Assembly (NCBI RefSeq): GCF_002232035.1
Contig: NZ_NKXR01000012.1
Span: forward strand, 1-64,000
Origin: Collinsella sp. TF06-26
GTDB lineage: Bacteria > Actinomycetota > Coriobacteriia > Coriobacteriales > Coriobacteriaceae
Reading direction: 5' to 3'
Length of the DNA stretch: 64,000 nt
A program made the position numbers and the translations under genes. Of the stretch, positions 40,267 to 56,943 are shown one piece after another; the stretch's first letter is position 1, and each line of letters starts with the position of its first letter. A model generated the notes under the pieces. The model worked only from the letters and a program-made list of their open reading frames with translations, searched no databases and was not told the DNA's origin.

Positions 40267-40563
40267 ATGGCATATTACTGGCCCCAGTACGGCGTCGCCA
40301 TCGAGGTCGACGACGATCCCTATCTCCTGCCTTTCGACGAAGAGGCGTTCCCCGATACGGCGGTCTACCACGTCACCACCGATGTTATCTGCGACCCCGA
40401 GTCGTTCTCGGCGCTCGCCCACCACATCGCGCGTATCCACGACATCGAGCTCCCTCACGACTTTGACGAGCTCATCTACTCGCGCCGCCTGATGCTTCAC
40501 ATGCTCTTTGGAGCGGACCCGTCCACGTTCGCACGTGTCTACACCACCAAGGACGCCGCATGA
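40267..40563 (+). CDS. Small hypothetical protein, first gene of the secreted-protein cluster
   Basis: This 98-residue acidic protein (MAYYWPQYGVAIEVDDDPYL...) has no signal peptide or membrane segment and resembles no family I can name. GGGAGG lies 5 nt before the ATG, and the next gene overlaps by 4 nt (ATGA), so it is real and co-translated. It may be a cytoplasmic partner or chaperone for the exported proteins encoded downstream; this is only inferred from position. Confidence 0.75.
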   Translation: MAYYWPQYGVAIEVDDDPYLLPFDEEAFPDTAVYHVTTDVICDPESFSALAHHIARIHDIELPHDFDELIYSRRLMLHMLFGADPSTFARVYTTKDAA

Positions 40564-41069
40564 GTGCAAAGAAGCCGCCCCGCCTCGCAGGACTGGGGCA
40601 TCGCAAGAAACTCGTCGTTGTCTGTCTGGCTATCGTCTGCGCCCTCATCGCCGTAGGGCTATACGCCTGGCAGTCGCAGCCCGTGCCCGAAGCGGGCGCC
40701 TCAGTCACGACGGCAGAGGGTAAATCGCGACAAGAAATCCAAGATGAGCTCGATGCCATCGTCCGCGACAACATGATGACGATTTCGGTCGCGCCGGTCG
40801 CTCAGCTACAGGAGGACGGCAAGCTGCGCGTCAACGTGCAAAACGTCCAAGACAATAAATTTCCCCAGCGATTCCGCGTCATCCAAAACGACGAGACCAT
40901 GTACGAATCCGGTGTGGTCGAGACCGGCAAGACAATCGAGACGTGCCCCGCCGGCGACATCAAAGAAGGCGAGGCATACATCGAGATCCAGGCACTCGAT
41001 GCCAAGACCCTCGACAGCCACGGCAATCCGACACGTGTCAAGGTACGGGTTGAGCAAGCCGAGAACTAG
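40560..41069 (+). CDS. Single-pass membrane protein with an extracytoplasmic beta-rich domain (unknown function)
   Basis: The 169 residues comprise a basic start, one membrane anchor (VVVCLAIVCALIAVGLYAW, about 20-38), then an external domain (SVAPVAQLQEDGKLRVNVQNVQDN...TMYESGVVETGKTIETCPAGDIKEGEAYIEIQ). That region reads like a short immunoglobulin-like sandwich found in bacterial surface or assembly proteins. It has a single Cys. It starts in the ATGA overlap with the upstream gene. No family is recognised. Confidence 0.75.
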   Translation: MSAKKPPRLAGLGHRKKLVVVCLAIVCALIAVGLYAWQSQPVPEAGASVTTAEGKSRQEIQDELDAIVRDNMMTISVAPVAQLQEDGKLRVNVQNVQDNKFPQRFRVIQNDETMYESGVVETGKTIETCPAGDIKEGEAYIEIQALDAKTLDSHGNPTRVKVRVEQAEN

Positions 41070-41159
41070 CTTTTTCGGCCGACGCGGCACCGCACGCAAT
41101 TCACCAGCATTCGTCCAATCATCGCGGGGACGGCCCGCGGCGAATAGAAAGGAACGACC

Positions 41160-41759
41160 ATGGACATCACCAGGAACATGAACGGAGCCAGAGCGCTCGT
41201 CGTGGGCGCAGGGCTCGCGCTCGCGCTCGCAATGGGCGCCGCCCCGACGCCAGCTCTGGCAGCCGGGCGCGTTGGAACCACGAAAGTAATGGTCAGGACC
41301 GAGATCGACAACGTAGAGTTCAAAGTTCCGACGGTTATTCCCTTCGTCGCCAAGGCCGACGGCACGCTTCAGGGCCCCTCAGAAGACGCGACCACCATCG
41401 ACAATCATTCGGCCTACGGCATCCATGTCACCAACATGAAGATCGACGCCATGAACACCTGGACCATTGCCGCCGACGCCAAGGCCGGAACCGCGCAGAA
41501 TTCCATCGACTTTAAGGTCGGCCCCGACGGCGCACTCCAGAACGCCAGCGCCGCAATGCAGGAGACGGGCCTCGATCTTTCCAAGAATGCAGCCTTCGAC
41601 ATGGGCTACCAGGGCATTGCCGGCGGCACGGACAAAATTAAGCTCAAGACAAGCGGAAACGTCGCCCGCGTCACGCGCGACATCTTCCGCGTAACCGGCG
41701 AAGGCGATCAGGTTGCAACGATCACCTGGACGGTCGAGCCCGGTGCGCACACGGCATAA
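41160..41759 (+). CDS. Secreted beta-rich protein of unknown function
   Basis: The 199-residue protein has a Sec signal peptide (ALVVGAGLALALAMGAAPTPALA, cleavage near 34) and a mature region with VPTVIPFVAKADGTLQGPS, DNHSAYGIHVTNMKID, NTWTIAAD and a C-terminal TITWTVEPG. This resembles beta-sandwich proteins that occur with LPXTG-type or WxL-like surface proteins; I cannot assign a family. It could be a subunit of a surface fibre or a ligand-binding protein. GAAAGGAACG precedes the ATG. It overlaps the following gene by 17 nt. Confidence 0.78.
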   Translation: MDITRNMNGARALVVGAGLALALAMGAAPTPALAAGRVGTTKVMVRTEIDNVEFKVPTVIPFVAKADGTLQGPSEDATTIDNHSAYGIHVTNMKIDAMNTWTIAADAKAGTAQNSIDFKVGPDGALQNASAAMQETGLDLSKNAAFDMGYQGIAGGTDKIKLKTSGNVARVTRDIFRVTGEGDQVATITWTVEPGAHTA

Positions 41760-42024
41760 GGCTATCGCCCTGGCCGCCACCGTCAGCATCCTAGCGTTTG
41801 GGCCAGCCATGGCCTTTGCCCAGCAAGAACAGGCACAGGCCGCCACGCAAGTGACGGTCGATCTCTCGGAACTCGACCGCGGCGACCGCGAGGAACCGTT
41901 GGCGCAGACAGGCGACAGACGATGGCTCTTGGCAGTAGGTGCCACAGCAGCAGGCGCGGGGACCGCCGGCCTCGGTCTGCACATCAAACACAGCCAGAAA
42001 CAAAACACGGATAGGCCGCACTAA
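41743..42024 (+). CDS. Small LAQTG-sorted cell-wall protein
   Basis: This 93-residue protein starts at a GTG inside the end of the upstream gene (MRTRHKAIALAATVSILAFGPAMAFA signal peptide), has a short acidic mature segment, and ends with EEPLAQTGD (LAQTG at 53-57), a hydrophobic segment (about 61-79) and a basic tail (HIKHSQKQ). That is a complete sortase sorting signal of the LAXTG type. The mature part is only about 25 residues, so the protein may be an anchor or a pilus-base peptide. A sortase is not encoded in the window. Confidence 0.72.
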   Translation: MRTRHKAIALAATVSILAFGPAMAFAQQEQAQAATQVTVDLSELDRGDREEPLAQTGDRRWLLAVGATAAGAGTAGLGLHIKHSQKQNTDRPH

Positions 42025-42042
42025 ATTAGCTAAGGAGACCCC

Positions 42043-43473
42043 ATGGCATCGAAGAACCTTTTGCCCGTCGTCGCACTCTGCGGCGCGCTCGCAACCGGAA
42101 CGCCTGTCGCCGCTTGGGCGACTCCCGTCATGGCAGACTCCTTACCAGCAGCCCTAAGCTCCGCACCAAATCCGTCGAGCGCCATTGCGTGTAAGCGTTT
42201 TTCGATTGCACAGGCCGCAATCTCAACCTCGGGATGCCTTCGTCGTAATACGGACGGCTCGATAGTCGTGGATATCAATCGTTCGAACAAGGTAAACGGC
42301 TCCCAGGCGGGGTGCGCCGTCTGCACGTGGCGCTCGGTTGTGCTCGATGCAGATGGCGATCCATGCAATTTAGAGCTGCGCATCGACATCGCTTCGGTCG
42401 ATGACTCGGCGAACGGAGCGAAGGTCGCCTTTGACGGTGCGTTTTTCGAGAAAGGAGGCGGTATATGTCTGGGCTGCGCCGCCGCGAATGCAGACGACAC
42501 GCAGCCCACCCTCTCATTCACGGCATCGTTGCGGCTGGCCAAAGCCGGCACCGATGCCATCGCGGCGGGAGAAACGTCCCTGCTGCTCTACGCCGCCAGC
42601 ACCAAAGATACAGACGCTCATTTCGAGAAGCCAGCCGGATCACTCAGCCTTACACGAGGGATAGAGGCAGGCCCTATTGAAATCGATGCCCACGCGCAAA
42701 GCAGGCAACGCATTCTTGCCGACCCGGCGCTTCTCGAAATGGAGTGGAACGGATCCGGAGCCATCGGAATTCTCCCCTCCGCGCTTGACGCCAAGACGCT
42801 CCCCTCAAACGACGAACCCATCAACGCAACCATACAAGAAGAGAGCGCGGACAAGGAAGCGGGTGCGGGCGACACGTCATCGCCGACAAACAGCGTCCCA
42901 GCTTCTTTCGAAGCACCGAATGAGCCCGCTACCGATCAAAACGATCCCGAGCTCGCGGACAGTCTGGGGCTTGCTGATCCTCAAGAAATCGATGAAGGTA
43001 ACTGCTGCGTGTTTGCCGCGCTCGACCACACGGAGGTCATCGACGCTGCAAGCATCGAAGTTGCCGCCGCCAATCAGCCCGTCCGCAAGTCGGCCATCAT
43101 CGCATTTCCTGAATCCATCGAAGTCGTCTTTTTGCCATCGGGCGAGGTCGTGGCCCCAACACTGCTCACCTTGTTGGGCGCCAAGAATACTCGAAACGAA
43201 ATAAAAAAGGTCACGGTTGTCGACCCTGCAACCACCGCTAAATTGCGCCTATACGCCGTTGCCCCAGACGGAGGCAAGACCTTGGAATTCGATGGCGACA
43301 CACTCCTAGCCTGGCGACGTCTGGACATTATGCAAGACGTCTCGTATCAGATCGAACTCGAAGGGTTTGATCGTACCCGCGATGCCAATATCATCGCCGC
43401 GGCTATTGAATCCCCACAGCGGCTTATGACACTGCGCTTTGACTACTATCCCTATGTCCCGACAACCACCTGA
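42043..43473 (+). CDS. Large secreted protein with a Cys-rich N-terminal domain (unknown function)
   Basis: The 476-residue protein has a signal peptide (LLPVVALCGALATGTPVAAWA), an N-terminal domain with several cysteines (SIAQAAISTSGC, GCAVCTWRSV, ICLGCAAA), an acidic Ser/Thr/Pro-rich linker (about 255-310), and a C-terminal beta-rich domain ending RLMTLRFDYYPYVP. No sorting motif or membrane anchor is visible, so it is released or held by a partner. It starts 18 nt after the LAQTG gene and completes the cluster. Function is unknown. Confidence 0.78.
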   Translation: MASKNLLPVVALCGALATGTPVAAWATPVMADSLPAALSSAPNPSSAIACKRFSIAQAAISTSGCLRRNTDGSIVVDINRSNKVNGSQAGCAVCTWRSVVLDADGDPCNLELRIDIASVDDSANGAKVAFDGAFFEKGGGICLGCAAANADDTQPTLSFTASLRLAKAGTDAIAAGETSLLLYAASTKDTDAHFEKPAGSLSLTRGIEAGPIEIDAHAQSRQRILADPALLEMEWNGSGAIGILPSALDAKTLPSNDEPINATIQEESADKEAGAGDTSSPTNSVPASFEAPNEPATDQNDPELADSLGLADPQEIDEGNCCVFAALDHTEVIDAASIEVAAANQPVRKSAIIAFPESIEVVFLPSGEVVAPTLLTLLGAKNTRNEIKKVTVVDPATTAKLRLYAVAPDGGKTLEFDGDTLLAWRRLDIMQDVSYQIELEGFDRTRDANIIAAAIESPQRLMTLRFDYYPYVPTTT

Positions 43474-43591
43474 GGCTTAAATACTGCGCGTCGTTGCTAA
43501 TACCACTTATATAACGTATTAGATGAGTCGCGATGTGTCTCGCATTCCATTCTGCTACGATTGCCACGTTGGCATCAATACAGGAGGGCTC

Positions 43592-44308
43592 ATGCCGGGC
43601 TTGGGAACAATCATCAACGTTGTCCTTTTAGTTGCGGGCGGTCTTTTGGGATTAGCGGGCGGTCGCTTTATCACACCGCGTATCCAAGACACGCTCATGA
43701 AAGCGTCGGGGCTGTGCGTCCTGTTTATCGGCCTTGGCGGCACCATGCAAAAGATGCTCCTTATCGATGGAAAGGCGCTGTCGACCACCGGTACCACCAT
43801 GCTCATCGTCTCATTTGCGCTCGGTTCGCTCATCGGCGAGGCCGTCGACTTGGAAGCCGCCATTGAGAACCTTGGCGAATGGCTCAAGCGCAAAACCGGC
43901 AGCGAGGGCGATAACGAGTTCACCAACGCTTTTGTCTCGACTTCGCTCACCGTGTGTATCGGCGCCATGGCCATTGTGGGATCGATTCAGGACGGCCTGC
44001 TCGGCGACCGGTCAACGCTTGCCCTCAAGGGCGCACTGGACTGCATCATCGTCTGCACCATGACGGCCTCACTTGGCCGCGGCTGCATCTTTTCCGCCCT
44101 GCCCGTCGCCGTGTTCCAGGGGACGATCACGCTGTTTGCCGGTGCACTCTCCCCCATCATGACCACGGCAGCCCTCGACAGCCTTTCGCTCGTAGGCTCC
44201 ATGCTCATCTTCTGCGTCGGCGTCAACCTTATCCGTCCTCAGACCTTCCGCACTGCCAATATGCTTCCCTCCGTCATCATCGCCGTCATCTACGCCCTCC
44301 TGTTCTAA
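43592..44308 (+). CDS. DUF554 family membrane protein
   Basis: The 238-residue protein has about seven membrane helices with the DUF554 features: GTIINVVLLVAGGLLGLAGGR, LFIGLGGTMQKML, SLIGEAVDLEAAIENLGEWLK, and FVSTSLTVCIGAMAIVGSIQDGL. DUF554 proteins are of unknown function, possibly transporters. The ATG at 43592 is selected by CAGGAGGG upstream; the frame starts earlier at 43523 without a ribosome site. It is not obviously part of the secreted cluster. Confidence 0.88.
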   Translation: MPGLGTIINVVLLVAGGLLGLAGGRFITPRIQDTLMKASGLCVLFIGLGGTMQKMLLIDGKALSTTGTTMLIVSFALGSLIGEAVDLEAAIENLGEWLKRKTGSEGDNEFTNAFVSTSLTVCIGAMAIVGSIQDGLLGDRSTLALKGALDCIIVCTMTASLGRGCIFSALPVAVFQGTITLFAGALSPIMTTAALDSLSLVGSMLIFCVGVNLIRPQTFRTANMLPSVIIAVIYALLF

Positions 44309-44359: not shown

Positions 44360-44395
44360 ATGAGGTCACCGTAGCTGCGTTCGAGAGGAGGAGCG

Positions 44396-46156
44396 GTGGC
44401 CGACCAGGACATCAAGATGCTCATCGAGCGCATTATGGCCGAGGCTCGGACCCATCAGTCCGCCCGCTTCTCAAACGAAATCTACGCAGACGAGCCGATT
44501 CTCAAGACCGGCCGACAGATGCAGAACTTCCTCCCCGACCAATACCGCAAGATGCGTGAGATATCGCGTTGGCAAGAAGACCCAAAGGGCGGCGCGGGCC
44601 GTTGGCTTTCGGAAGCCGAACTTTTCTACCGCCAAGGCCTGCTGATGGCTGACTTTGAGGACGACTGTCCCTACAACGGCACCTTTAAGTCGTACTTTCC
44701 CACCTACAACGCCATGAGCGACCGGCAGTTGCGCGGCTACTTTACCTGGCGTGCCCAAGTGCGCCGCGGAACCGTCGAGGAAACGTCTACGTCCTTTGCC
44801 TTTCTGTATCTCTATGAGCTGATCTGCGGCATTGGCGTAGATAATCCACTCGATGGTTTTAACAAGATCAAGGCTTTTTGGGATGTCTATCGCGCCTTCG
44901 AGCCCGGCATCGACCGGTTTGCGCGCGTGTGGCTGCAAGATTACGCCGTGTTCCACGGGCTCGACCCCAAGCTGCTTCGCGACTCTAAAACCGTCATGTT
45001 CGATAACGCCCTTATCGAACTGCGGCGCGCGGCACGAGACCTTGTACCGGCACCGGCACCGTCCGGCCAGACCCCTAAGCGTCGCAAAACCTCCGAGCCC
45101 ACGCTCCCCCTTCCGCCCGATGAGGTGCGCGAGGAGCGACTCATGGCCGCCATCAACGCCCTCTCCACGTACAACCTAAGTAGCTCGCGGCTCGACCGCA
45201 GCCACCACCGCGATCTGCGCCACGTGGCGTGCGCCGTGTATGTCCGCATGACGCGCTACTATGACACGCACCGAAAGACCGGCATCGTGGCAAGTTTATT
45301 TGGGGAGGAGACGGCAATGCCCTACACCATGTTTGCCTCGGCCGTATTCTTTGCGCCCGAGCGCCACGAGGACTGCGAATACCGTCTGGACCCCATCCAT
45401 ATCTACCGTTGCCAAAACGGTTTTTGGGAATGCATGCGGATTCACGGCAGCAGACAAAAGAGCAGCAAACTTGGCGAGATGATGCGCGCCTGCGACCAAC
45501 GCCTGCGCCTGGCCCTGGACCCTGCCCATCCCCTGAAGGAAGAAAAGGTCCCCAAATATCTGGCCAAGATTATCGATGACGAGATTGTGGCATGGCTTTC
45601 GTGGGACGCCGCACACCAGCCCGTCAAGATCGATATCGATTTGAGCCAGCTGGGGCACATTCGGAGCGCTGCCGCACAAACGCGCGAAGCGCTTTTGATC
45701 GACGAGGAACGCGAGGACGGCGCGTCCGCAGAAGCCGAGGCAGCGGACTCAGGGCAACCGGAAGCCGAGCCCGTAGCCGACGCGATGGTCGAGGCGGTCG
45801 CGGCGGCTGCAGGGCGGGACGAGTCCGACGGGCCGACCATATCCACCGAACAGTTTGGTGTCGTGGCACCGCTTCTCGCGCCGACGCCCGCGTTCGCAGC
45901 TGCTACGCCCGCTGACGCCACAAACGAACTCGCGCCCGCCGCAGACGCCTATCTCCGCGCTCTGCTCGAGCACAACACAGTACAGGCGGAATCGGCGGTA
46001 GTGCAATCGGAGCAGAGCGAGGACATGCTCGTCGATACCATCAACGAGGCGCTCTTTGACCTGGTGGGCGACACCGTAATTGAATTTAGCGCGGCAGGGC
46101 CGCAGATTATCGAGGACTATGAAGCAGACGTGAGAGGATACCTAGACCATGAGTGA
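44396..46156 (+). CDS. sngA: TerB-N/TerB-C domain protein, SngA-like (Shango system)
   Basis: The 586 residues show the TerB-N domain (ISRWQEDPKGGAGRWLSEAELFYRQGLLMADF, YFTWRAQVRRG, TSFAFLYLYELICGIG, residues ~60-200) and at the C-terminus a TerB-C-like end (INEALFDLVGDTVIEF...IIEDYEADV). An Ala/Glu-rich linker separates them. No membrane segment is seen. It starts at a GTG after GAGGAGGAG and overlaps the ATPase gene by 8 nt. TerB-type proteins pair with an ATPase and helicase in the anti-phage system Shango, where this would be SngA. The symbol is by architecture, not by a search. Confidence 0.82.
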   Translation: MADQDIKMLIERIMAEARTHQSARFSNEIYADEPILKTGRQMQNFLPDQYRKMREISRWQEDPKGGAGRWLSEAELFYRQGLLMADFEDDCPYNGTFKSYFPTYNAMSDRQLRGYFTWRAQVRRGTVEETSTSFAFLYLYELICGIGVDNPLDGFNKIKAFWDVYRAFEPGIDRFARVWLQDYAVFHGLDPKLLRDSKTVMFDNALIELRRAARDLVPAPAPSGQTPKRRKTSEPTLPLPPDEVREERLMAAINALSTYNLSSSRLDRSHHRDLRHVACAVYVRMTRYYDTHRKTGIVASLFGEETAMPYTMFASAVFFAPERHEDCEYRLDPIHIYRCQNGFWECMRIHGSRQKSSKLGEMMRACDQRLRLALDPAHPLKEEKVPKYLAKIIDDEIVAWLSWDAAHQPVKIDIDLSQLGHIRSAAAQTREALLIDEEREDGASAEAEAADSGQPEAEPVADAMVEAVAAAAGRDESDGPTISTEQFGVVAPLLAPTPAFAAATPADATNELAPAADAYLRALLEHNTVQAESAVVQSEQSEDMLVDTINEALFDLVGDTVIEFSAAGPQIIEDYEADVRGYLDHE

Positions 46157-47453
46157 TACCGCATCCGCAGCACCTCGCGTGCCCAAGCGCGTCGCTGCCG
46201 TCATTCTCAACTCGCTCAAGGGCGGCGTGGTCCCGCGCATCGGCCTTCCTTACATCACCGTAGGGCGCGAGGTCGAGATCCGCGCCCTGCTCACCGATCT
46301 GAGTCTCATCGCCGACGGTGGCGCGAGCTTCCGCTTTCTGGTCGGTCGTTACGGCGCCGGCAAGAGCTTTTTGCTCCAGACTGTCCGCACGCACGCCATG
46401 GGCGAGGGGTTCGTCGTCGCTGATGCCGACCTGTCGCCCGAGCGCCGCCTGCAGGGCGGTCAGGGACAGGGCCTTGCCACCTACCGCGAGCTCATCCGCA
46501 ATATATCGACCAAGACGCGCCCCGAGGGCGGTGCGCTCAACCTTATTCTGGATCGCTGGGTCGCCTCGTGTGCCGACGTCGACGAGTCGGTCGTCAATGC
46601 CCAACTGGCCCCGCTCGAGGAGATGGTCCACGGCTTCGACTTCACCCGCATGCTCCGCCGCTATCGCATGGCCGCATCCGGGGGCGACGAAGAGACCATG
46701 AGCCGCGTGACCAAATGGATTCGCGGCGAATACCGCACCAAGAGCGAGGCACGCGCCGAGCTGGGCTCCTCGACCATCATCAGCGATGACGACTGGTACG
46801 ACTACGTTAAGCTCATTGCGCGCTTTTTGGTTTGCAGTGGCTACAAGGGCATGCTGGTGCTCATCGACGAGCTCGTGAATCTGTATAAGATTCCCAACGC
46901 CATCACGCGCCAATACAACTACGAGAAGATCCTGACTATGTACAACGACACGCTCCAGGGCAAGGCGCAGTACCTGGGCATGATCATGGGCGGCACGCCA
47001 ACCTCCATCGAAGACCGCCGCCGCGGCGTGTTCTCCTACGAGGCCCTGCGCAGCCGACTCGCTCAGGGCCGCTTTGCGCGCGAAGACCTTAAGGACATGC
47101 TCGCGCCCATCATCCGCCTGCAGCCACTCACCTACGAGGAGCTACTGGTGCTCATCGAAAAACTCATGCAGATCCATGCCGGCTACTTTGGCTGGACGCC
47201 CACGCTTGCCGAAAACGACTTGGTGGACTTCCTCAAGATCGAGTTCGGTCGCGTGGGAGCCGACACGCATCTGACGCCGCGTGAAGTCATTCGTGACTTT
47301 ATCGAGCTGCTCGATATCCTGTGTCAGAACCCCGATGCAAATGTGGCCGAGCTGCTGCAAAGCGTCGGCGGCGACGCGCTGGCGCCGGCAGCCGCAACAG
47401 GCGACACCGGCACCGCAGGCGGCGACCGCAACTTCGCCGAGTTCACCATCTAA
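46149..47453 (+). CDS. sngB: DUF2791 P-loop ATPase, SngB-like
   Basis: The 434-residue AAA-type ATPase belongs to DUF2791 (BrxC/BrxD-like). It has Walker A GRYGAGKS (66-73), Walker B MLVLIDELVNL, GGTPTSIEDRRRGVFSYEALRSRL (sensor region) and a helical C-terminus (TPREVIRDFIELLDILCQ). Such ATPases occur in BREX and Shango defence loci. It overlaps sngA by 8 nt. No pglZ, methylase or brxA-like gene is nearby, so BREX is unlikely. The protein ends in a Gly/Ala-rich tail. Confidence 0.85.
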   Translation: MSDTASAAPRVPKRVAAVILNSLKGGVVPRIGLPYITVGREVEIRALLTDLSLIADGGASFRFLVGRYGAGKSFLLQTVRTHAMGEGFVVADADLSPERRLQGGQGQGLATYRELIRNISTKTRPEGGALNLILDRWVASCADVDESVVNAQLAPLEEMVHGFDFTRMLRRYRMAASGGDEETMSRVTKWIRGEYRTKSEARAELGSSTIISDDDWYDYVKLIARFLVCSGYKGMLVLIDELVNLYKIPNAITRQYNYEKILTMYNDTLQGKAQYLGMIMGGTPTSIEDRRRGVFSYEALRSRLAQGRFAREDLKDMLAPIIRLQPLTYEELLVLIEKLMQIHAGYFGWTPTLAENDLVDFLKIEFGRVGADTHLTPREVIRDFIELLDILCQNPDANVAELLQSVGGDALAPAAATGDTGTAGGDRNFAEFTI

Positions 47454-47569
47454 CCTACCAAAAAGGGACAGGTTTATTTTGGCAGGTTTTATCTGGGCAA
47501 ACGTTGAAGCAGTAATGCAGCAAGCCGTTGCCAGCCGCGTTGAGAGATTCGTTGTTGAAAGGAGGCCCC

Positions 47570-50011
47570 GTGAACGCCTTTGACCGCTACGCCCCGTTTA
47601 TCCAAGACTTCATCTACTCCCACGATTGGGAGAGTCTGCGCTCCATTCAGGTTGCGGCGGCAGATGCCATCTTTAGCACACAAGACAATGTGCTCCTAAC
47701 GGCATCCACGGCATCCGGCAAAACCGAGGCAGCCTTCTTTCCCATCCTGACCGAGTTTTGGGAGAACCCGCCCGCGAGCGTGGGCGCCCTCTACATTGGC
47801 CCCCTCAAAGCGCTCATCAATGATCAGTTCGTCCGCCTCAACGACCTCTGCGAAGAGGCCGACATCCCTGTCTGGCACTGGCATGGCGACGTTTCGCAGT
47901 CGCACAAGGCAAAGCTCATCAAAAAGCCGAGCGGCATTTTGCAGATTACACCCGAGTCGCTCGAGGCGCTCCTGATCCATAAGCACATGGCGATCCCGCG
48001 CATGTTTTGCGACCTGCGCTACGTCGTCATCGACGAGGTCCACTCGCTCATGCGCGGCGATCGAGGCGGGCAGACGCTCTGCCTTATCGAGCGACTCTCG
48101 CACATGGCCGGCGTGCAGCCTCGCCGCATTGGCCTTTCGGCTACCATCGGCGACCCCGAGCGCACGGGTGCTTTTCTCTCACAGGGAACGGGACGCGACT
48201 GCGTTATCCCCCGCTTTGAAGAACCGCGCCGCGTGTGGCGCATCTCCATGGAGCACTTCTACAACTCGGGTCCCCAGGCGCAGCAGCGAGGATTTGAGAG
48301 TACAGGTCCTCAAGAGGCCGAAGTGCTTGCGTGCGAGCGCATTGAGGCGGCACCCGCGGCACTGCCCGCCGGCGCCCAAGACATGCGTCACAGCGGACAG
48401 CCCACACAAGAGGAGTACCGCCAACGTCGTGAGCGGGCACGGGACAAGGCTACCTCCAGGGATCACCGCACTTCGTCGGCCCCCGAGGGCGAAGTCGACA
48501 TCCCACAGGCACCCGAACAGGCATTACTCAACCCCACCGACACAGCGCCAGACAACGCCGACCCCGGCATGGGCTATATCTTTGAGCACACGCGCGGCCG
48601 CAAATGCCTGGTCTTTGCCAACTCGCGCGAGGAGGCAGAGGCCGTATGCTCCATGCTGCGCAGCTACTGCGAGAGCCGGCACGAGCCCGACCGCTTTCTC
48701 ATCCACCACGGCAACCTTTCGGCATCGTTACGCGAGACCGCCGAGGAGCTCATGCGCGACGAGGAACAGGCACAGACGACCGTCACCACCTCTACGCTGG
48801 AACTCGGTATTGATATCGGCCGTCTGGAGCGTGCCTTCCAGATCGACGCACCATTTACCGTCAGCTCCTTTTTGCAGCGAATGGGCCGCACGGGACGCCG
48901 CGATCTTCCGCCCGAGATGTGGTTCGTTATGCGCGAGGAAGAGCCCGAGCCGCGCACGATGATGCCCGAGACCATTCCCTGGAAGCTCCTCCAGGGCATC
49001 GCGCTCGTACAACTCTATCGCGAGGAAAAGTGGGTCGAGCCGCCCGAGCTCGATCGACTCCCCTACAGTCTGCTCTATCACCAGACCATGTCGACCCTCG
49101 CCAGCACCGGAGAGCTCACGCCGGCCGAACTTGCCCAGCGCGTGCTCACGCTCAGCTATTTCCATCGCATCTCGGCCGATGACTATCGCGTGCTGCTGCG
49201 TCACCTCATTACAATCGACCATATCCAGGTCACCGAGGGCGGCGGGCTCATCGTGGGTCTCGCGGGCGAGCGTATCATTAACAACTTTAAGTTTTACGCC
49301 GTGTTCCAGGAAAACGAGGAGTTCACCGTTCGCAGCGAGTCGGCCGAGTTGGGCACGATTGTCAATCCGCCACCGCCCGGTGAGCGCATCGCCATCGCCG
49401 GACACTGCTGGATTGTCGAGGAAGTGGACTGGAAGCGTCATACCGTCTTTGCCACGCAGGTCAAGGGCCGGGTGCCGGCCTACTTTGGCGACTGCCCCGG
49501 TGACATCAACACACATGTACTCGAGCGTATGCGCAAGGCGCTTAACGAGCACGCGTCGTATCCGTACCTCATGGGTAATGCACGGGCCCGTCTGGCGCAG
49601 GCTCGCCATACGGCCGAGATTTCGGGCGCGGGGACCAAGCCGCTCATTAACCTGGGCGGCGACACCTGGGTGCTCTTCCCCTGGCTGGGAAGCTACGCCT
49701 TTTTGGCGCTCGAACGTATGCTCAAGATTAAATGCGCCGCGGAGCTGGGCCTTCGCGGACTCGACCCGTCACGCCCGTACTTTATGCAGTTTAAGATGAA
49801 GGCCGACGAGGAGACGTTCTTTGAGGTGCTCGCCGCCGAGGCCGAAAAGGACTTCGACCCCATCGAGCTCGTCTATCCCGGCGAGGTGCCTTACTTTGAT
49901 CGCTACGACGAGTACGTTCCCGAGGAGCTCGTGCGCAAGGGCTTTGCCGAAGGCGTGCTCGACATAGAGGGCATGAAGCAGCGCGTTCACGGCTGGCGCG
50001 ACCACGCCTAA
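47570..50011 (+). CDS. sngC: DEVH-box superfamily II helicase, SngC-like
   Basis: This 813-residue helicase has Walker A TASTASGKTEA (Lys51), LYIGPLKALINDQ, VVIDEVHSLMRGDRGGQ, LSATIGDPE, STLELGIDIG and QRMGRTGRRD. A divergent, charged insertion of ~70 residues (HSGQPTQEEYRQRRERARDKA...) follows motif III. The C-terminal half is Lhr-like. GTG at 47570 has AAAGGAGG 4 nt upstream. It follows sngB on the same strand after a 116-nt gap. With the TerB protein and ATPase it completes a Shango-type trio. Confidence 0.87.
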   Translation: MNAFDRYAPFIQDFIYSHDWESLRSIQVAAADAIFSTQDNVLLTASTASGKTEAAFFPILTEFWENPPASVGALYIGPLKALINDQFVRLNDLCEEADIPVWHWHGDVSQSHKAKLIKKPSGILQITPESLEALLIHKHMAIPRMFCDLRYVVIDEVHSLMRGDRGGQTLCLIERLSHMAGVQPRRIGLSATIGDPERTGAFLSQGTGRDCVIPRFEEPRRVWRISMEHFYNSGPQAQQRGFESTGPQEAEVLACERIEAAPAALPAGAQDMRHSGQPTQEEYRQRRERARDKATSRDHRTSSAPEGEVDIPQAPEQALLNPTDTAPDNADPGMGYIFEHTRGRKCLVFANSREEAEAVCSMLRSYCESRHEPDRFLIHHGNLSASLRETAEELMRDEEQAQTTVTTSTLELGIDIGRLERAFQIDAPFTVSSFLQRMGRTGRRDLPPEMWFVMREEEPEPRTMMPETIPWKLLQGIALVQLYREEKWVEPPELDRLPYSLLYHQTMSTLASTGELTPAELAQRVLTLSYFHRISADDYRVLLRHLITIDHIQVTEGGGLIVGLAGERIINNFKFYAVFQENEEFTVRSESAELGTIVNPPPPGERIAIAGHCWIVEEVDWKRHTVFATQVKGRVPAYFGDCPGDINTHVLERMRKALNEHASYPYLMGNARARLAQARHTAEISGAGTKPLINLGGDTWVLFPWLGSYAFLALERMLKIKCAAELGLRGLDPSRPYFMQFKMKADEETFFEVLAAEAEKDFDPIELVYPGEVPYFDRYDEYVPEELVRKGFAEGVLDIEGMKQRVHGWRDHA

Positions 50012-50038: not shown

Positions 50039-50917
50039 TTACTTGTCGTGAAGGACGGTGCCGAGGAAGTCGGTGTCGAAGGGCACGGCTTCGGCAAAGG
50101 CGTAGTCGCCGTCGCTGGCGATGAGCAGGTAGTTTTCCTCGCCGCTGAACTTCGCATCGCCACATGGGACCACCCAGGCGTGGACGAATACCTCGAGCGC
50201 CGTGGCAGCGCAGTCGCGAAGGAACGTCACATCGCTCCCCTCGTTTGCGCTCACGATATTGGCCACGTAGATACCCCCGGGGTTCAGGCTGCCCCGCACC
50301 AGGCGCAGCGCCTCAACGGTCGCCAGCTCGCGCACGGGCTCGGCACCGCCAAAGCAATCGCTCACGACCACGTCGTAGCGACGATGGCCCACGCTCGTCA
50401 CACCCAGATACGAGCGAGCCTCAGCGGTAATCACCCGCAGGCGATCGCCCACCGCGTGCTCCAGTTCATCCAGATAGAACCAACGGCGCGCCAAGCGCGT
50501 TATCTCTCCGTCATACTCGATGACGTCCATGCGCAGGACCTTGTGCGACATCAGCGCAAACTTGGGATAGGCAAACCCGCCGCCACCTAGCATAAGCATA
50601 CGGTTGATACCGTGACCATAAGCGTCGCGCATCACATCCTCGGCCTCAAACACGTCGTCAAACGCGCGATAGTACGCAAAGACGGGCTCCGCCCAGCGCT
50701 CGCCAACGTAACTCGCGCTTTGGTAGACGCCGCCTTGCACCAATACGCGAACTTCGTCGCCGCCCTCATCGTGCACGCGCTTCACACGTGCCAGCCCATT
50801 GCGGGTCCTCGCGACCTGCAGACAGGCAGCACGAACAGCGACAGCGGCCGCACCAAGCGCCGCGGCTCCCAGAGCAACGCCGGCAACGACGCCGGCAGAA
50901 ACACTCGGCTTGTTCAT
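50039..50917 (-). CDS. Spermidine-synthase-like methyltransferase-fold protein
   Basis: The 292-residue protein has an N-terminal hydrophobic segment (VVAGVALGAAALGAAAVAVRAA) and a spermidine-synthase-type Rossmann domain (MLMLGGGGFAYPKFAL, MDVIEYDGEITRLARRWF, YDVVVSDCFGG). The aminopropyl-transferase Asp in YDGE is followed by DVVVSDCF, so real polyamine synthase activity is uncertain. It is encoded immediately after elp3 (stop at 50918) with AAAGGAGC before the ATG, so the two are one operon. A membrane-anchored methyltransferase-like role is equally possible. Confidence 0.75.
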   Translation of the reverse strand: MNKPSVSAGVVAGVALGAAALGAAAVAVRAACLQVARTRNGLARVKRVHDEGGDEVRVLVQGGVYQSASYVGERWAEPVFAYYRAFDDVFEAEDVMRDAYGHGINRMLMLGGGGFAYPKFALMSHKVLRMDVIEYDGEITRLARRWFYLDELEHAVGDRLRVITAEARSYLGVTSVGHRRYDVVVSDCFGGAEPVRELATVEALRLVRGSLNPGGIYVANIVSANEGSDVTFLRDCAATALEVFVHAWVVPCGDAKFSGEENYLLIASDGDYAFAEAVPFDTDFLGTVLHDK

Positions 50918-52825
50918 CTAGAGCTCCTTTTGCAGATAAAGGCCATGGTCATAAAATCCAAGATGGCGATAGTACTCGCGCGTACCGATCGCGCTGATCA
51001 CGTTGATGTACGTATAGCCAGCGTCCCGAGCTATCTGGCACGCACGCTCCACGAGCAAACGTCCCAATCCATGGTGCTGCGCTGCCTGGCCCTGATCGCC
51101 CACGCGCGCCGCCATGCCATACACGTGCACCTCACGAATCATCGCCTCGTCCGGCATCGTCGGCAGCTCGTCCGCATGTGCGGCAACAAAAGCGCGATCG
51201 GGCAGCGACAGCCGCAAAAAGCCGGCGATCTTGCCTTCGGGCGTCACCCACTGCAAAAAGCGTTCACGCGTCACCGGCGTCTCGTACGTCACTTCTTCGT
51301 CAAGGGTCAACTCGCCCAGGTCGGCACCCGCCGTGCTGATCTCGCGATAGCGAATCTCACGCACCGTCGCACCGTCACCCCGAGCAGCCAGGCGGTTCTC
51401 GACGAGCTGACGCAGGTTGGGCTTCTTGTTGCCCACCATGATGTCATCGGAACTAAAGTCGCGAATCATGCGGCTGATGCGGCAGAATGCCGGCGTCACC
51501 ACGATGTCATCGGCCAGTACGTCGAGCAGCTCTTCCTCGGTATAGGGGCGCCACTCGCCACGCTCGTAACAGCCCACCAGGCGCGAACCCTCGATGAGCG
51601 CACACGGGTAGACCTTGACCTCGTCGGGCATAAAGGCCCCCTCGGTCATAAAGCGCTCGTAGTCGCGCTTGTCCCCCTCGGGTGTGGCGCCCAGCAAGTT
51701 GAGCATAAAATGCGCATGGATCTTAAAGCCAAACAGGCGCGCAAGCGAAAACGCCCGCTCGATCTGCGCCACCGAAATGCGACGCTCGTTGATATCGAGT
51801 AGATGCTGGTCAAGGCTTTGGATGCCCATCTGTATCTTGGTGCAGCCCAGGCGGCGGATGAGCGTAAGCGCCTGCGGCGTTACGGTATCGGGGCGCGTCT
51901 CGATAACGAGTCCCACCACGCGATGCTTCGCCGTCTCGTTGATGCGCTGCTGACGCTCGAGCTCCTCCATCGTTGCCGTCTGCCACTCGGTGACCTCGCC
52001 CCACGGCGTACCGGGGCCGTACAGACGACGCACCGCGCGGTTATAGCCGCCCACGGCAGCATCCACACGCTCCTGCTCGTCGGCAACGCCGGCAGCGAGC
52101 TTGGCCTCGTCTGTCGCAATGCCGGCAGCCCGATAGCGCTCGCGGCGCTCTGTTACCACCGGCGGCAGGGCATCGGCGGGAGCGTCATCGAGCAGGCGCC
52201 CCGCCTCGGCACGGCTGATGCCCGGACGCGCCAACATGGGGTTTGCCGCCACGCCGGCGACGGCATCGTCATTGAGCGCACGGAAAAGCTCGGACATAAA
52301 CCACGTCTGATACCCTTGCGGATAGTCGCTCCAGGTCCCACCGAGCACGATGAGCTCTATCTTGTCGGTCGCATGCCCCATCTGCGAAAGCGCGGTCAGA
52401 CGAGCGCTCACCTGCAGATACGGATCGAAGCAGTTTTGCTCCGCACGGGCACACGCCGGCTCAGCGTGCAGATAGCTCTTGGGCATGCGCAGATCGTTGG
52501 GACAAAATAGGCAATCGCCCGAGCATGGCCAGGGCTTGGTGATAACGGTAATGGTCGCCACGCCCGAAGCCGTGCGGCGCGGCTTCATGCGCAGCACCTG
52601 CAGCAGTTGGCGTTCCAGATCGGAATCGACATTCCACGCAGCCCACCGAGCCGGCTCCTCGCGCTTCACCCGCTGATAGAACGGCAGCAGACGGCGCTTG
52701 GCCAAATCGCGTTTGTCGGCACCCTCACGGCGCGCCTCGGCATGTATCAGTTTGACGAGCGCCTTGTCGTCCACGGTCTCGCCGCGACGCAGGGCCTCAA
52801 GTATGTTCAAGATAATCTGTTCCAT
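50918..52825 (-). CDS. elp3: Elp3-family radical SAM/GNAT tRNA wobble-uridine modification enzyme
   Basis: The 635 residues show an Elp3 architecture. The radical SAM cluster is Cys101, 105, 108 in PWPCSGDCLFCP, followed by RMPKSY, the FDPY.Q block and MGIQSLDQHLLDINERR. A GNAT domain occupies the C-terminus (VYGMAARVGDQGQAAQHHGLGRLL). Elp3 places carboxymethyl-type groups at C5 of U34 in tRNA. Many bacteria lack it. The ATG follows GGGGAC. It is upstream of the spermidine-synthase-like gene, near trmB and a Trm9-like methyltransferase. Confidence 0.93.
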   Translation of the reverse strand: MEQIILNILEALRRGETVDDKALVKLIHAEARREGADKRDLAKRRLLPFYQRVKREEPARWAAWNVDSDLERQLLQVLRMKPRRTASGVATITVITKPWPCSGDCLFCPNDLRMPKSYLHAEPACARAEQNCFDPYLQVSARLTALSQMGHATDKIELIVLGGTWSDYPQGYQTWFMSELFRALNDDAVAGVAANPMLARPGISRAEAGRLLDDAPADALPPVVTERRERYRAAGIATDEAKLAAGVADEQERVDAAVGGYNRAVRRLYGPGTPWGEVTEWQTATMEELERQQRINETAKHRVVGLVIETRPDTVTPQALTLIRRLGCTKIQMGIQSLDQHLLDINERRISVAQIERAFSLARLFGFKIHAHFMLNLLGATPEGDKRDYERFMTEGAFMPDEVKVYPCALIEGSRLVGCYERGEWRPYTEEELLDVLADDIVVTPAFCRISRMIRDFSSDDIMVGNKKPNLRQLVENRLAARGDGATVREIRYREISTAGADLGELTLDEEVTYETPVTRERFLQWVTPEGKIAGFLRLSLPDRAFVAAHADELPTMPDEAMIREVHVYGMAARVGDQGQAAQHHGLGRLLVERACQIARDAGYTYINVISAIGTREYYRHLGFYDHGLYLQKEL

Positions 52826-52922: not shown

Positions 52923-53822
52923 TCACTCCGAATCAAACGACATGTCGCCCGAACCGACCTTAAAACGATACGTGGCAGATTTATCACCGTTGTCGAATTC
53001 AAGATTCAAAATGGTCTCGCCGTCGTAGCCAAGCGGAAGGAAATCGCTCTCGAAGTCGCCGCTGCCCACGGTGAGGCTCGCCTTAAAGCCCGTAGAGTTC
53101 GGAACCGATATCTCCACATCGCCCGAGTCCACGCTTACGTCCATCGACTTCGCGGGGGCCTGGTAGAGCTCGAACGTCACATCGCCCGAACCGACCTCAG
53201 CACTGAGCGCATCAGTCACGCTGCCCGTAAACTCTACATCTCCCGCACCCAGGAAAAGGTCAAAACCATCACAGATGACACCGGCAATCTGCAGATCACC
53301 CGAGCCCACGTGCGCGTTGATCCCCTTCAGATGTTCGGCAACACGGCGCGGCAGCTCGACCGTAACTGAGCGATCGATTGCCTTACCGTCATCACTTCCA
53401 AACTGGGAAACCTTGAGCGTCGAGTCCTCGACGGATGCGATGTTTTGCGTCGCGGCCTTGGAGGCATCCATACCCTTGGCAACGCGTCCCCGCTCGATAA
53501 CGCGAGCCTTGTTGCCATCAACAACCTTGACGTCCACCGAAGCCGCATTGATATCGAAATCGAGGTAGCGGAACTCATCGGCATCAAAAGTCGTGCTCGA
53601 AAGCTGCTGAGGCCGAGCGGAATAGTTACCGCTATTCAAGGAATCGTCCTCGTCAAACATATCGTCAAAATCAGACAAATGGCCAGATAGAATACCGGTC
53701 GTACGCACAATATCGGAATGAGCCAATAGCCGCGAAGTGCCAAAGATAAGCCCGATGATGAGCACGAACGCTCCGATACCAACACCCAGGCGCACCTTCG
53801 ATTCATGCGAGAGCTTCATCAT
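52923..53822 (-). CDS. DUF4097 membrane-anchored beta-helix protein
   Basis: The 299-residue protein has one N-terminal membrane helix (GVGIGAFVLIIGLIFGTSRLL) and repeated units with VGSGD, GAGD, VGSGD, VDSGD, VGSGD cores (NAHVGSGDLQI, FLGAGDVEF, EVGSGDVTF, VDSGDVEI, VGSGDFES). This is the right-handed beta-helix of DUF4097/DUF4098 adhesin-like proteins. Partner regulators of this family respond to envelope stress. It overlaps the regulator gene by 4 nt (ATGA), so translation is coupled. Confidence 0.85.
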   Translation of the reverse strand: MMKLSHESKVRLGVGIGAFVLIIGLIFGTSRLLAHSDIVRTTGILSGHLSDFDDMFDEDDSLNSGNYSARPQQLSSTTFDADEFRYLDFDINAASVDVKVVDGNKARVIERGRVAKGMDASKAATQNIASVEDSTLKVSQFGSDDGKAIDRSVTVELPRRVAEHLKGINAHVGSGDLQIAGVICDGFDLFLGAGDVEFTGSVTDALSAEVGSGDVTFELYQAPAKSMDVSVDSGDVEISVPNSTGFKASLTVGSGDFESDFLPLGYDGETILNLEFDNGDKSATYRFKVGSGDMSFDSE

Positions 53823-56704: not shown

Positions 56705-56817
56705 TGAGTAGACTTTTTTGCAATAGCCAGGCACAGCCCGCATAGCGAAACATAAAACCGCAGGTAGAACCCTTGCGCAAAAGCCATGTGCTGGCGAAAT
56801 CGCAAAAAGTCTACTCA
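56705..56817. mobile_element. 113-bp MITE-like element with 31-nt terminal inverted repeats
   Basis: The left end 56705-56735 begins TGAGTAGACTTTTTTGC and the right end 56787-56817 is its imperfect reverse complement (GCAAAAAGTCTACTCA). The outermost 14 bp match perfectly and GCCAG/CTGGC recurs inside. It encodes nothing and occupies most of the gap 56635-56943 between trmB and the helicase. A target-site duplication is not clear, so a large regulatory hairpin is an alternative. Confidence 0.6.
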
Positions 56818-56943
56818 CTTAGCTCGCGGCCGCACCAAACGGCTGAGCAGAACGCCCATTTCCTGCATTTTCTTTCGCGCTGGCACCCCGCGCCGCCGCT
56901 ACGCCATAATAGTTGGCGGACAATCGCGAGAGAAAGCAAACAC

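What the first reader, a model, noticed from the sequence alone, without database searches (positions are those of the whole stretch)
44396..50011. Shango-like anti-phage system in a gut actinobacterium
Three consecutive plus-strand genes encode a TerB-N/TerB-C protein, a DUF2791 P-loop ATPase and a DEVH helicase, the first two overlapping by 8 nt. Shango, a known anti-phage system, is composed of a TerB-like SngA, an ATPase SngB and a helicase SngC; this locus has the same order and domains. Sequence evidence: Walker A in both ATPase proteins, DEVH and QRMGRTGRRD in the helicase. That this copy defends against phage is inference. TerB-based ATPase/helicase trios may also have non-defence roles.
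Basis: partly seen in the sequence, partly recalled or inferred. Interest (0 to 1): 0.8.

Follow-up and report, generated by a model that had tools for sequence, protein, structure and literature searches.

The report
Family-wide core Shango-type ATPase–helicase genes
The three genes are a real Shango system, a known anti-phage ATPase–helicase trio, but in the sampled relatives of this gut bacterium they are always found and behave like inherited core genes rather than a mobile defence, so what they do there is an open and testable question.

Summary
Three plus-strand genes match PADLOC's SngA, SngB and SngC (E 3e-75, 3e-168, 7e-276), in Shango order, with an 8-nt sngA/sngB overlap. The nearest named relatives are Collinsella aerofaciens.

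SngC is in 43 of 43 genus genomes, SngB in 41 (both misses have sngA cut at a contig end), SngA in 65 of 65 family genomes. Cas1 (12), HSDR_N (18) and PglZ (13 of 43) are patchy. Position is largely conserved. Outside the aerofaciens clade, distances track Mfd's, and are smaller than Mfd's for SngB and SngC, larger for SngA. sngC lies apart from sngAB in 19 of 43 genomes.

Most likely this is an inherited, fixed Shango machine: an ORC/Cdc6-like ATPase serving a BrxHI-type helicase, directed by a TerB_N/TerB_C protein. Defence in Collinsella is inferred and untested; a genome-maintenance role is a serious rival.

The parts
44396..46156 (+). sngA: TerB_N + TerB_C protein, 586 aa, GTG start after a purine-rich Shine-Dalgarno (GAGAGGAGGAG) at about 44384-44393
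   Evidence: PADLOC SngA E 3.3e-75; Pfam TerB_N 64-195 and TerB_C 407-580; start region; AlphaFold model pLDDT 84.3
46149..47453 (+). sngB: ORC/Cdc6-like AAA+ ATPase of the BrxC/BrxD family, 434 aa; overlaps sngA by 8 nt
   Evidence: PADLOC SngB E 3.2e-168; Pfam BrxC_BrxD E 2e-148; overlap; best structural match in the second look Cdc6/Orc1 2qby_B, Z 15.3, rmsd 4.1, 254 aligned
47570..50011 (+). sngC: BrxHI-like SF2 helicase, 813 aa from the likely GTG start (ORF open from TTG 47528)
   Evidence: PADLOC SngC E 7.3e-276; Pfam DEAD + Helicase_C; AGGAGG CCCC GTG at 47560-47572
43523..44308 (+). conserved upstream neighbour (DUF554), not part of the system
   Evidence: Pfam; upstream of sngA in 19 of 20 fetched aerofaciens-clade loci (the other, L109, ends inside sngA) and in a few other family members
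50039..50917 (-). conserved downstream neighbour, spermidine-synthase-like, not shown to be part of the system
   Evidence: NCBIfam MFS_SpdSyn; downstream of sngC, within 5 kb, in 38 of 42 genus genomes counting the window
50918..52825 (-). conserved downstream neighbour Elp3, core context
   Evidence: NCBIfam TIGR01211 400 bits over a cut-off of 350; found at 60% or more of its length in 33 of 42 genus genomes within the fetched stretch

Best explanation
The locus is a complete Shango system that has become part of the inherited core genome of Collinsella and its family. Shown here: family identity of all three proteins, intact motor motifs, presence in every adequately assembled genus genome, a largely conserved position, divergence that follows a core gene across the genus outside the aerofaciens clade, and strong purifying selection on the two motor proteins. 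Inferred mechanism: SngB, an ORC/Cdc6-like AAA+ ATPase, assembles on DNA and loads or activates SngC, a BrxHI-type SF2 helicase that translocates on and remodels that DNA. SngA, the fastest-changing part, with a C-terminal winged-helix-like domain, recognises or licenses the target and couples recognition to the motor. The most likely substrate is foreign or abnormally replicating DNA (phage or plasmid), so the locus would act as a constitutive innate barrier. Pfam shows no nuclease domain in any of the three, so the block is more likely displacement or stalling of the invader's replication, or recruitment of a host nuclease, than direct cutting by the trio.
For: PADLOC SngA/B/C. SngA 65 of 65 family genomes, SngB 41 of 43 and SngC 43 of 43 genus genomes, against Cas1 12, HSDR_N 18 and PglZ 13 of the same 43. 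Order sngC - spdS - elp3 across the genus where the stretch reaches, and in 4 of 5 loci examined from other genera of the family. Among the 20-21 non-aerofaciens genus members, distances follow Mfd (r 0.863-0.866, 0 of 999 permutations reach them); no starred tree conflict for SngB or SngC, one for SngA (24 taxa). dN/dS in the aerofaciens clade 0.043 (sngB), 0.046 (sngC), 0.128 (sngA), against 0.034 (mfd) and 0.062 (elp3). DEVH, SAT and the GKT of Walker A in 42 of 42 SngC, GAGKS in 41 of 41 SngB; extracted SngC frames at least 773 aa in 42 of 42, SngB at least 431 aa in 41 of 41. SngB model closest to Cdc6/Orc1, Z 15.3; by Foldseek E-value the first hit is RdrA of the RADAR defence system, E 3e-5. 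Precedent: the BrxD-BrxHI dyad of type-2 BREX is proposed to work by helicase loading (PMC12839542, passages). Shango lowers phage plating 10-100-fold in Pseudomonas aeruginosa (PMC10250203, passages).
Against: No phage or fitness data were found for any Collinsella Shango. Core status, a non-island neighbourhood and slow motor divergence fit a housekeeping role as well or better. The DNA-loading step and the role of SngA rest on homology and predicted monomers only; the winged-helix match is weak (Z 6.0). Within the aerofaciens clade gene distances do not follow Mfd (r -0.07, -0.11 and 0.15 for sngA, sngB and sngC), though spdS does not either (0.07), so recombination is the likely reason; and there SngB and SngC are slightly more divergent than Mfd (0.024 and 0.031 against 0.021). 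One genus of the family (g24; locus G164, the same contig as L199) lacks the conserved neighbours and its SngB branches outside the main family clade, so a separate acquisition there is possible, although one clade for the family is not rejected (p-AU 0.476, group named after seeing the tree). Separation of sngC from sngAB in 19 of 43 genomes argues against strictly coupled expression.
Confidence: 0.55

Rival explanations
1. A domesticated genome-maintenance machine: in this family the trio serves chromosome replication, fork restart or repair, and its relation to phage defence is ancestral or secondary.
For: SngA in 65 of 65 family genomes; across the genus SngB and SngC show 0.72-0.79 of Mfd's protein distance; core position; the trio is kept although sngC is separated from sngAB in 19 of 43 genomes; no relative found in phage records or, with two short patterns, in viral contigs.
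Against: Members of neighbouring families live without it: SngB is in 106 of 140 genomes and 19 of 35 genera of one family and 15 of 138 of another. SngA diverges 1.4-1.7 times as much as Mfd even in its ordered domains, unusual for a maintenance factor. A tested relative is anti-phage. Inside the aerofaciens clade the motors are not slower than Mfd.
Confidence: 0.33
2. An ordinary accessory defence system acquired recently on a mobile element.
For: Shango is found on plasmids: 691 plasmid records hold a SngB relative (some may be BrxD, three were checked and are Shango trios), and P. aeruginosa carries Shango in a defence hotspot (PMC10250203, passages).
Against: All plasmid relatives are under 60% identical. 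None in phage records, none found in viral contigs. Found throughout the family, mostly at one site. GC and GC3 are close to those of core neighbours.
Confidence: 0.03
3. A dispersed part of a type-2 BREX system, supplying its BrxD ATPase and BrxHI helicase.
For: SngB matches PADLOC BrxD (E 1.3e-38) and SngC matches BrxHI/BrxHII (E 4.2e-122).
Against: Scores for SngB and SngC are far higher. NCBIfam BREX_BrxD 131.5 bits against a cut-off of 350. PglZ has no match in the window's own genome and is in only 13 of 43 genus genomes, whereas SngC is in all 43.
Confidence: 0.02

Closest known systems
Shango (SngABC), anti-phage system of Escherichia coli and Pseudomonas aeruginosa
   Same: All three proteins and their order; PADLOC models match strongly; TerB-like protein, ATPase and helicase as described in PMC10250203 (passages).
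   Different: Found in all sampled family members, mostly at one site, instead of in a defence hotspot; sngC often apart from sngAB; the core TerB domain PF05099, found in a Klebsiella plasmid SngA, is not detected here, nor in the Paenibacillus and Aeromonas SngA examined. The E. coli and PA14 proteins themselves were not compared directly.
BrxD-BrxHI dyad of type-2 BREX (Pgl)
   Same: Homologous ORC/Cdc6-type ATPase plus SF2 helicase; PMC12839542 proposes helicase loading for the dyad (passages).
   Different: No PglZ in the window's genome; a TerB_N/TerB_C partner instead of PglW/PglX/PglZ/BrxC; BrxD score under the family cut-off.
Highly conserved anti-MGE defence systems (HCADS, PMC13064858)
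   Same: Concept of defence systems kept as core genes; that paper defines them at 90% or more of a species' genomes (passages).
   Different: Here the conservation spans 65 species genomes in 6 genera of a family. The paper's main text has no mention of Coriobacteri- or Collinsella, and reports conserved Shango as over-represented in prophages.

Membership tests
Shango | SngA: TerB-like protein | tested here: met
   PADLOC SngA E 3.3e-75, and 53 of 53 aligned SngA of related loci; Pfam TerB_N and TerB_C over cut-off
Shango | SngA carries the core TerB domain PF05099 (listed for Shango in PMC10952713, passage) | tested here: inconclusive
   Not detected at E up to 1 in this SngA, nor in two other Coriobacteriia SngA, nor in the Paenibacillus and Aeromonas SngA; detected in a Klebsiella SngA (518-624). 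Profile comparison aligned only the TerB_N region
Shango | SngB ATPase | tested here: met
   PADLOC SngB E 3.2e-168; Walker A and DE-containing Walker B in 41 of 41 genus sequences
Shango | SngC DEAD/DEAH helicase | tested here: met
   PADLOC SngC E 7.3e-276; DEVH and SAT in 42 of 42 genus sequences
Shango | Three-gene locus in the order A-B-C | tested here: met
   Met in the window. Across the genus sngB and sngC are adjacent in 23 of 43, 0.6-10 kb apart in 14, on separate contigs in 5, unresolved in 1
Shango | Anti-phage activity | not testable with these tools
   No phenotype data for this locus
Shango | Usual genomic behaviour of known Shango (accessory, in defence hotspots or mobile elements); not definitional | tested here: not met
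   65 of 65 family genomes, core neighbourhood, none found in viral contigs or phages
BREX type 2 | BrxD at family cut-off | tested here: not met
   131.5 bits against 350
BREX type 2 | PglZ present in the genome | tested here: not met
   No PF08665 match in G000; 13 of 43 genus genomes have one
Ligase-associated or Lhr-type housekeeping helicases | SngC at the NCBIfam cut-off of such a family | tested here: not met
   TIGR04121 193 bits against 850; PRK13767 165 against 849; PRK09751 85 against 1496

The most novel reading that the evidence does not exclude
In this family the Shango trio is a core genome-maintenance machine, an ORC/Cdc6-type loader plus helicase under a TerB_N/TerB_C adaptor, needed for normal chromosome metabolism; what is known elsewhere as a mobile anti-phage system would then be a specialised use of the same engine.
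Probability: 0.25. Interest if true: 0.75.

Novelty: new member of a known kind. Interest (0 to 1): 0.45.

Why it matters
In the papers seen here, Shango is described by its domains and its phage phenotype; no passage seen gives a mechanism. A bacterial family in which it is found in every sampled genome, mostly at one site, with a conserved motor and a faster-changing third protein, is a natural test of whether a 'defence system' can be a fixed immune organ or a housekeeping machine. It also warns against inferring a mobile defence from domain names alone. A neighbour-based caller would probably miss many Collinsella copies, because sngC lies apart from sngAB in 19 of 43 genomes (the consequence for callers is inference).

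Tried and rejected
Considered and rejected: BREX membership; recent mobile acquisition.

The idea that the sngB-sngC gap is a hotspot of extra defence genes was tested by calling genes in 16 gaps, 13 of them from the genus (the 0.6-kb gap of G024 was not examined), and running 10 of the called proteins, from four gaps, through PADLOC and Pfam. They are an iron-only hydrogenase-like protein, transporter parts, ZnuA, a glutamate-synthase-like protein, a PTS with its regulator and a glucosidase, and an M13 peptidase; PADLOC's hits are to the general ABC/AAA fold or weak. The hydrogenase-like protein recurs in 9 gaps. No gene was called in the G017 gap. The other called proteins were not searched.

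The lack of SngB in G026 and G032 is probably an assembly gap: in G026 the sngA match ends 9 bases from a contig end; in G032 (72% complete) it is cut 71 bases from a contig end. For the five genomes with sngC on another contig, broken assembly may play a part; in G015 and G016 the contigs are long (339 kb or more) and the genes lie far from the ends, so there the genes really are apart.

The match of SngB to a designed repeat protein (7rdr) has no stretch passing on its own and was set aside. No solved structure matches SngA by sequence. Foldseek found nothing for SngA at E <= 0.001; the second look covers mainly the C-terminal domain, so the other domains are barely tested. SngA was compared with three plasmid SngA by profile: only TerB_N aligned.

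The genus-wide Mantel correlations (r 0.96-0.98) are inflated by the split into two clusters; the figures quoted are the within-group ones.

In the SngB tree 10 of 33 rows titled Coriobacteriaceae lie outside the main branch. Three (L179, L180, L199) form a group of their own; L199 is by name length and contig length the contig of G164, which the genome collection puts in the window's family. Seven (L194, L196, L205, L209, L211, L215, L216) are MAG rows among rows titled Atopobiaceae and may be misnamed. One row titled Atopobiaceae (L174) lies inside. Holding the main branch together with L179, L180 and L199 costs 1.79 log-likelihood units, p-AU 0.476; the group was named after the tree was seen. 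Eight near-identical aerofaciens rows were dropped before that tree (76 of 84 rows used).

The genome collection holds one genome per species, so strain-level loss could not be tested. The viral-contig scan used only two short peptide patterns.

Literature searches: Shango + phage (42 papers, 40 listed); Collinsella + Shango (4 papers; titles on colorectal cancer and gut metabolites, where 'Shango' is probably part of another word); SngA/SngB/SngC (63 papers, 20 listed); Collinsella with defence-finding tools (66 papers with 4 of 5 terms, 20 listed, none of these with Collinsella). None of the listed titles is about Shango in Coriobacteriaceae. Passages of PMC13356809 and PMC10924106 that mention Shango were seen; neither paper's main text holds 'Coriobacteri'. 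Only open-licence papers are held; Millman et al. 2022, which described the E. coli system, was not seen (known through citations).
Full report
What is there. The window holds three consecutive plus-strand genes at 44396-46156, 46149-47453 and about 47570-50011. The 8-nt overlap of the first two is confirmed. The third gene is open from TTG 47528, but an AGGAGG four bases before GTG 47570 makes the latter the more likely start. PADLOC names the proteins SngA, SngB and SngC with E-values of 3.3e-75, 3.2e-168 and 7.3e-276. Pfam finds TerB_N and TerB_C in the first, BrxC_BrxD in the second and DEAD plus Helicase_C in the third. NCBIfam does not promote SngB to BREX BrxD (131.5 bits against a cut-off of 350) or SngC to any helicase equivalog.

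Whose genome. The genome collection's family code f1 is taken to be Coriobacteriaceae because its contigs coincide in length with named Collinsella and Enorma records.

How it is distributed. In the 43 genomes held for the genus (one per species), SngC is found in 43 and SngB in 41. The two SngB misses are probably assembly gaps, since sngA is cut at a contig end in both. SngA is found in 65 of 65 genomes of the family, 6 of 6 genera; several of these (G026, G031, G032, G035, G246) are partial matches at contig ends. As a yardstick, known defence markers in the same 43 genomes are patchy: Cas1 12, HSDR_N 18, PglZ 13. In a neighbouring family of the order SngB is in 106 of 140 genomes and 19 of 35 genera. 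Only 20 of the 34 misses there are listed; of these 20 only one (G405) is in a genus that also has hits, which hints at a genus-wide all-or-none pattern. In a third family it is rare, 15 of 138, two of those being weak matches. In a sample of the class it is 169 of 396, a few of them weak.

Where it lies. In the 20 other fetched members of the aerofaciens clade the order etf/fad - surface-protein genes - DUF554 - sngA - sngB - sngC - spermidine-synthase-like - elp3 - DUF4097/HTH - methyltransferase - trmB is the same as in the window, as far as the fetched stretches reach. In the genus as a whole the spermidine-synthase-like gene is downstream of sngC, within 5 kb, in 38 of 42 genomes, and elp3 follows in 33 of 42; several of the other stretches end first. 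The same order is seen in 4 of 5 loci from other genera of the family (G079, G105, G132, G206; not G164). Yet the trio is not always contiguous: sngB and sngC are adjacent in 23 of 43 genomes (the 21 of the aerofaciens clade, G013 and G037), 0.6-10 kb apart in 14, on separate contigs in 5 and unresolved in 1. The genes in between, where searched, are metabolic. A core context, with the operon broken up in many species but with no loss shown, is not what a mobile defence cassette looks like.

How it evolves. Among the 20-21 genus members outside the aerofaciens clade, pairwise distances of SngA, SngB and SngC follow those of Mfd, whose gene in the window lies about 33 kb from sngA (r 0.863, 0.866 and 0.866; none of 999 permutations reaches them); elp3 gives 0.789 (12 genomes) and spdS 0.716 (17). 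Well-supported branches of the Mfd tree are contradicted by none of SngB's or SngC's and by one of SngA's (24 taxa). Inside the aerofaciens clade (21 genomes) no such correlation exists for sngA (-0.07), sngB (-0.11), sngC (0.15) or spdS (0.07), and a weak one for elp3 (0.27), which is most simply recombination among close relatives. There dN/dS is 0.043 for sngB, 0.046 for sngC and 0.128 for sngA, against 0.034 for mfd and 0.062 for elp3, and SngB and SngC are slightly more divergent than Mfd (0.024 and 0.031 against 0.021). Outside that clade they are less divergent: 0.72-0.73 of Mfd's protein distance, whereas the ordered domains of SngA show 1.42-1.71 of it and its disordered linker 2.85. 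GC and third-position GC are close to those of core neighbours.

A SngB tree gathers 23 of 33 rows titled Coriobacteriaceae, the window and one row titled Atopobiaceae in one starred branch. Ten such rows lie outside: seven MAG rows among Atopobiaceae rows, perhaps misnamed, and three (L179, L180, L199) that form a group of their own; L199 corresponds to G164, a family member that also lacks the conserved neighbours. One clade for the family with these three is not rejected (p-AU 0.476). So descent with the species is well supported in the genus, likely in most of the family, and open for that one genus.

Mobile relatives. SngB relatives occur on 691 plasmid records, all under 60% identity, mainly Klebsiella and Salmonella; some may be BrxD. 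Three plasmid loci examined are complete Shango trios by annotation. None was found in 50,697 phage records. Of 43 candidate stretches in the viral contigs, found with two short patterns, none encoded a relative.

How it probably works. SngB keeps its P-loop and its DE-containing Walker B in 41 of 41 genus sequences; SngC keeps DEVH and SAT in 42 of 42. The SngB model (pLDDT 73.7) is most like archaeal Cdc6/Orc1 (2qby_B, Z 15.3, rmsd 4.1, 254 aligned), with TnsC also high (7mbw_D, Z 13.0). By Foldseek E-value the first hits are RdrA of the RADAR defence system (8hr8, E 3e-5) and ORC, with BrxC of BREX lower. A 2026 analysis of BREX classes the homologous BrxD as an ORC-Cdc6 AAA+ ATPase and suggests that it loads or activates the BrxHI helicase; its main text does not mention Shango or TerB (PMC12839542, passages). 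A helicase phylogeny puts SngC with BrxHI, DruE and DpdJ (PMC12278908, passage). The SngA model is confident (pLDDT 84.3). Its last 75-80 residues resemble winged-helix DNA-binding domains of LysR type, but weakly (Z 6.0, rmsd 3.2, 72 aligned); the rest is barely tested. The loader-helicase-adaptor model is therefore an inference from homology. That the substrate is foreign DNA is inferred from the tested Pseudomonas system, which lowered plating 10-100-fold for many but not all phages (PMC10250203, passages).

Defence or housekeeping. For defence: the tested homologues, and the faster-changing SngA beside a conserved motor. For housekeeping: presence throughout the family, core position, motor proteins less divergent than Mfd across the genus, retention despite operon break-up. 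Against housekeeping: members of neighbouring families live without it. That defence systems can be core within a species is already published (HCADS, PMC13064858, passages); its main text does not mention Coriobacteri- or Collinsella. The present case spans a family. I favour a fixed innate barrier at 0.55, with genome maintenance at 0.33.

Verdict. A true member of a known kind with unusual evolutionary behaviour. Its suggestion that this is a defence locus of the usual sort is weakened by its own stated test.

Noticed in passing
window 40560-43473: A run of secreted or anchored proteins; three of them (199, 103 and 476 aa) have no Pfam match, and the 103-aa one has an LAQTG motif before a hydrophobic tail (by eye). 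The 476-aa gene has a dN/dS of 0.289 in the aerofaciens clade, over four times that of elp3.
   Followed up: partly
window 52923-53822 (DUF4097): Identity of this protein to close relatives is bimodal, 70-73% or 86-96%, in genomes whose adjacent elp3 and HTH proteins are all 89% or more identical, as if two allele classes were exchanged by recombination.
   Followed up: no
window 50039-50917; L176-L178, L181, L182, L185-L190: The spermidine-synthase-like gene is near the trio in two families in different arrangements: downstream of sngC in Collinsella and relatives, upstream of sngA in Olsenella/Thermophilibacter loci.
   Followed up: partly
L181, L182, L188, between sngB and sngC: A pair of small minus-strand genes that looks like a PIN-domain toxin and an antitoxin (read by eye, no family search); one or the other member also in L176 and L177.
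   Followed up: no
L210, L213, L218, L219, L221-L223: Oscillospiraceae (Ruminococcus albus and relatives) encode SngB 63-66% identical to the window's, as close as some Atopobiaceae rows, which suggests gut or rumen cross-phylum transfer at some time.
   Followed up: no
L254 (Klebsiella plasmid CP110754.1): A plasmid Shango flanked by IS elements, with an AAA ATPase and UvrD-helicase gene pair upstream and a silver-resistance cluster downstream.
   Followed up: no
window 56773-59625: A DEAD helicase with DUF3516, also found downstream of trmB in other genus loci whose stretch reaches that far, such as L115, L117 and L130.
   Followed up: no
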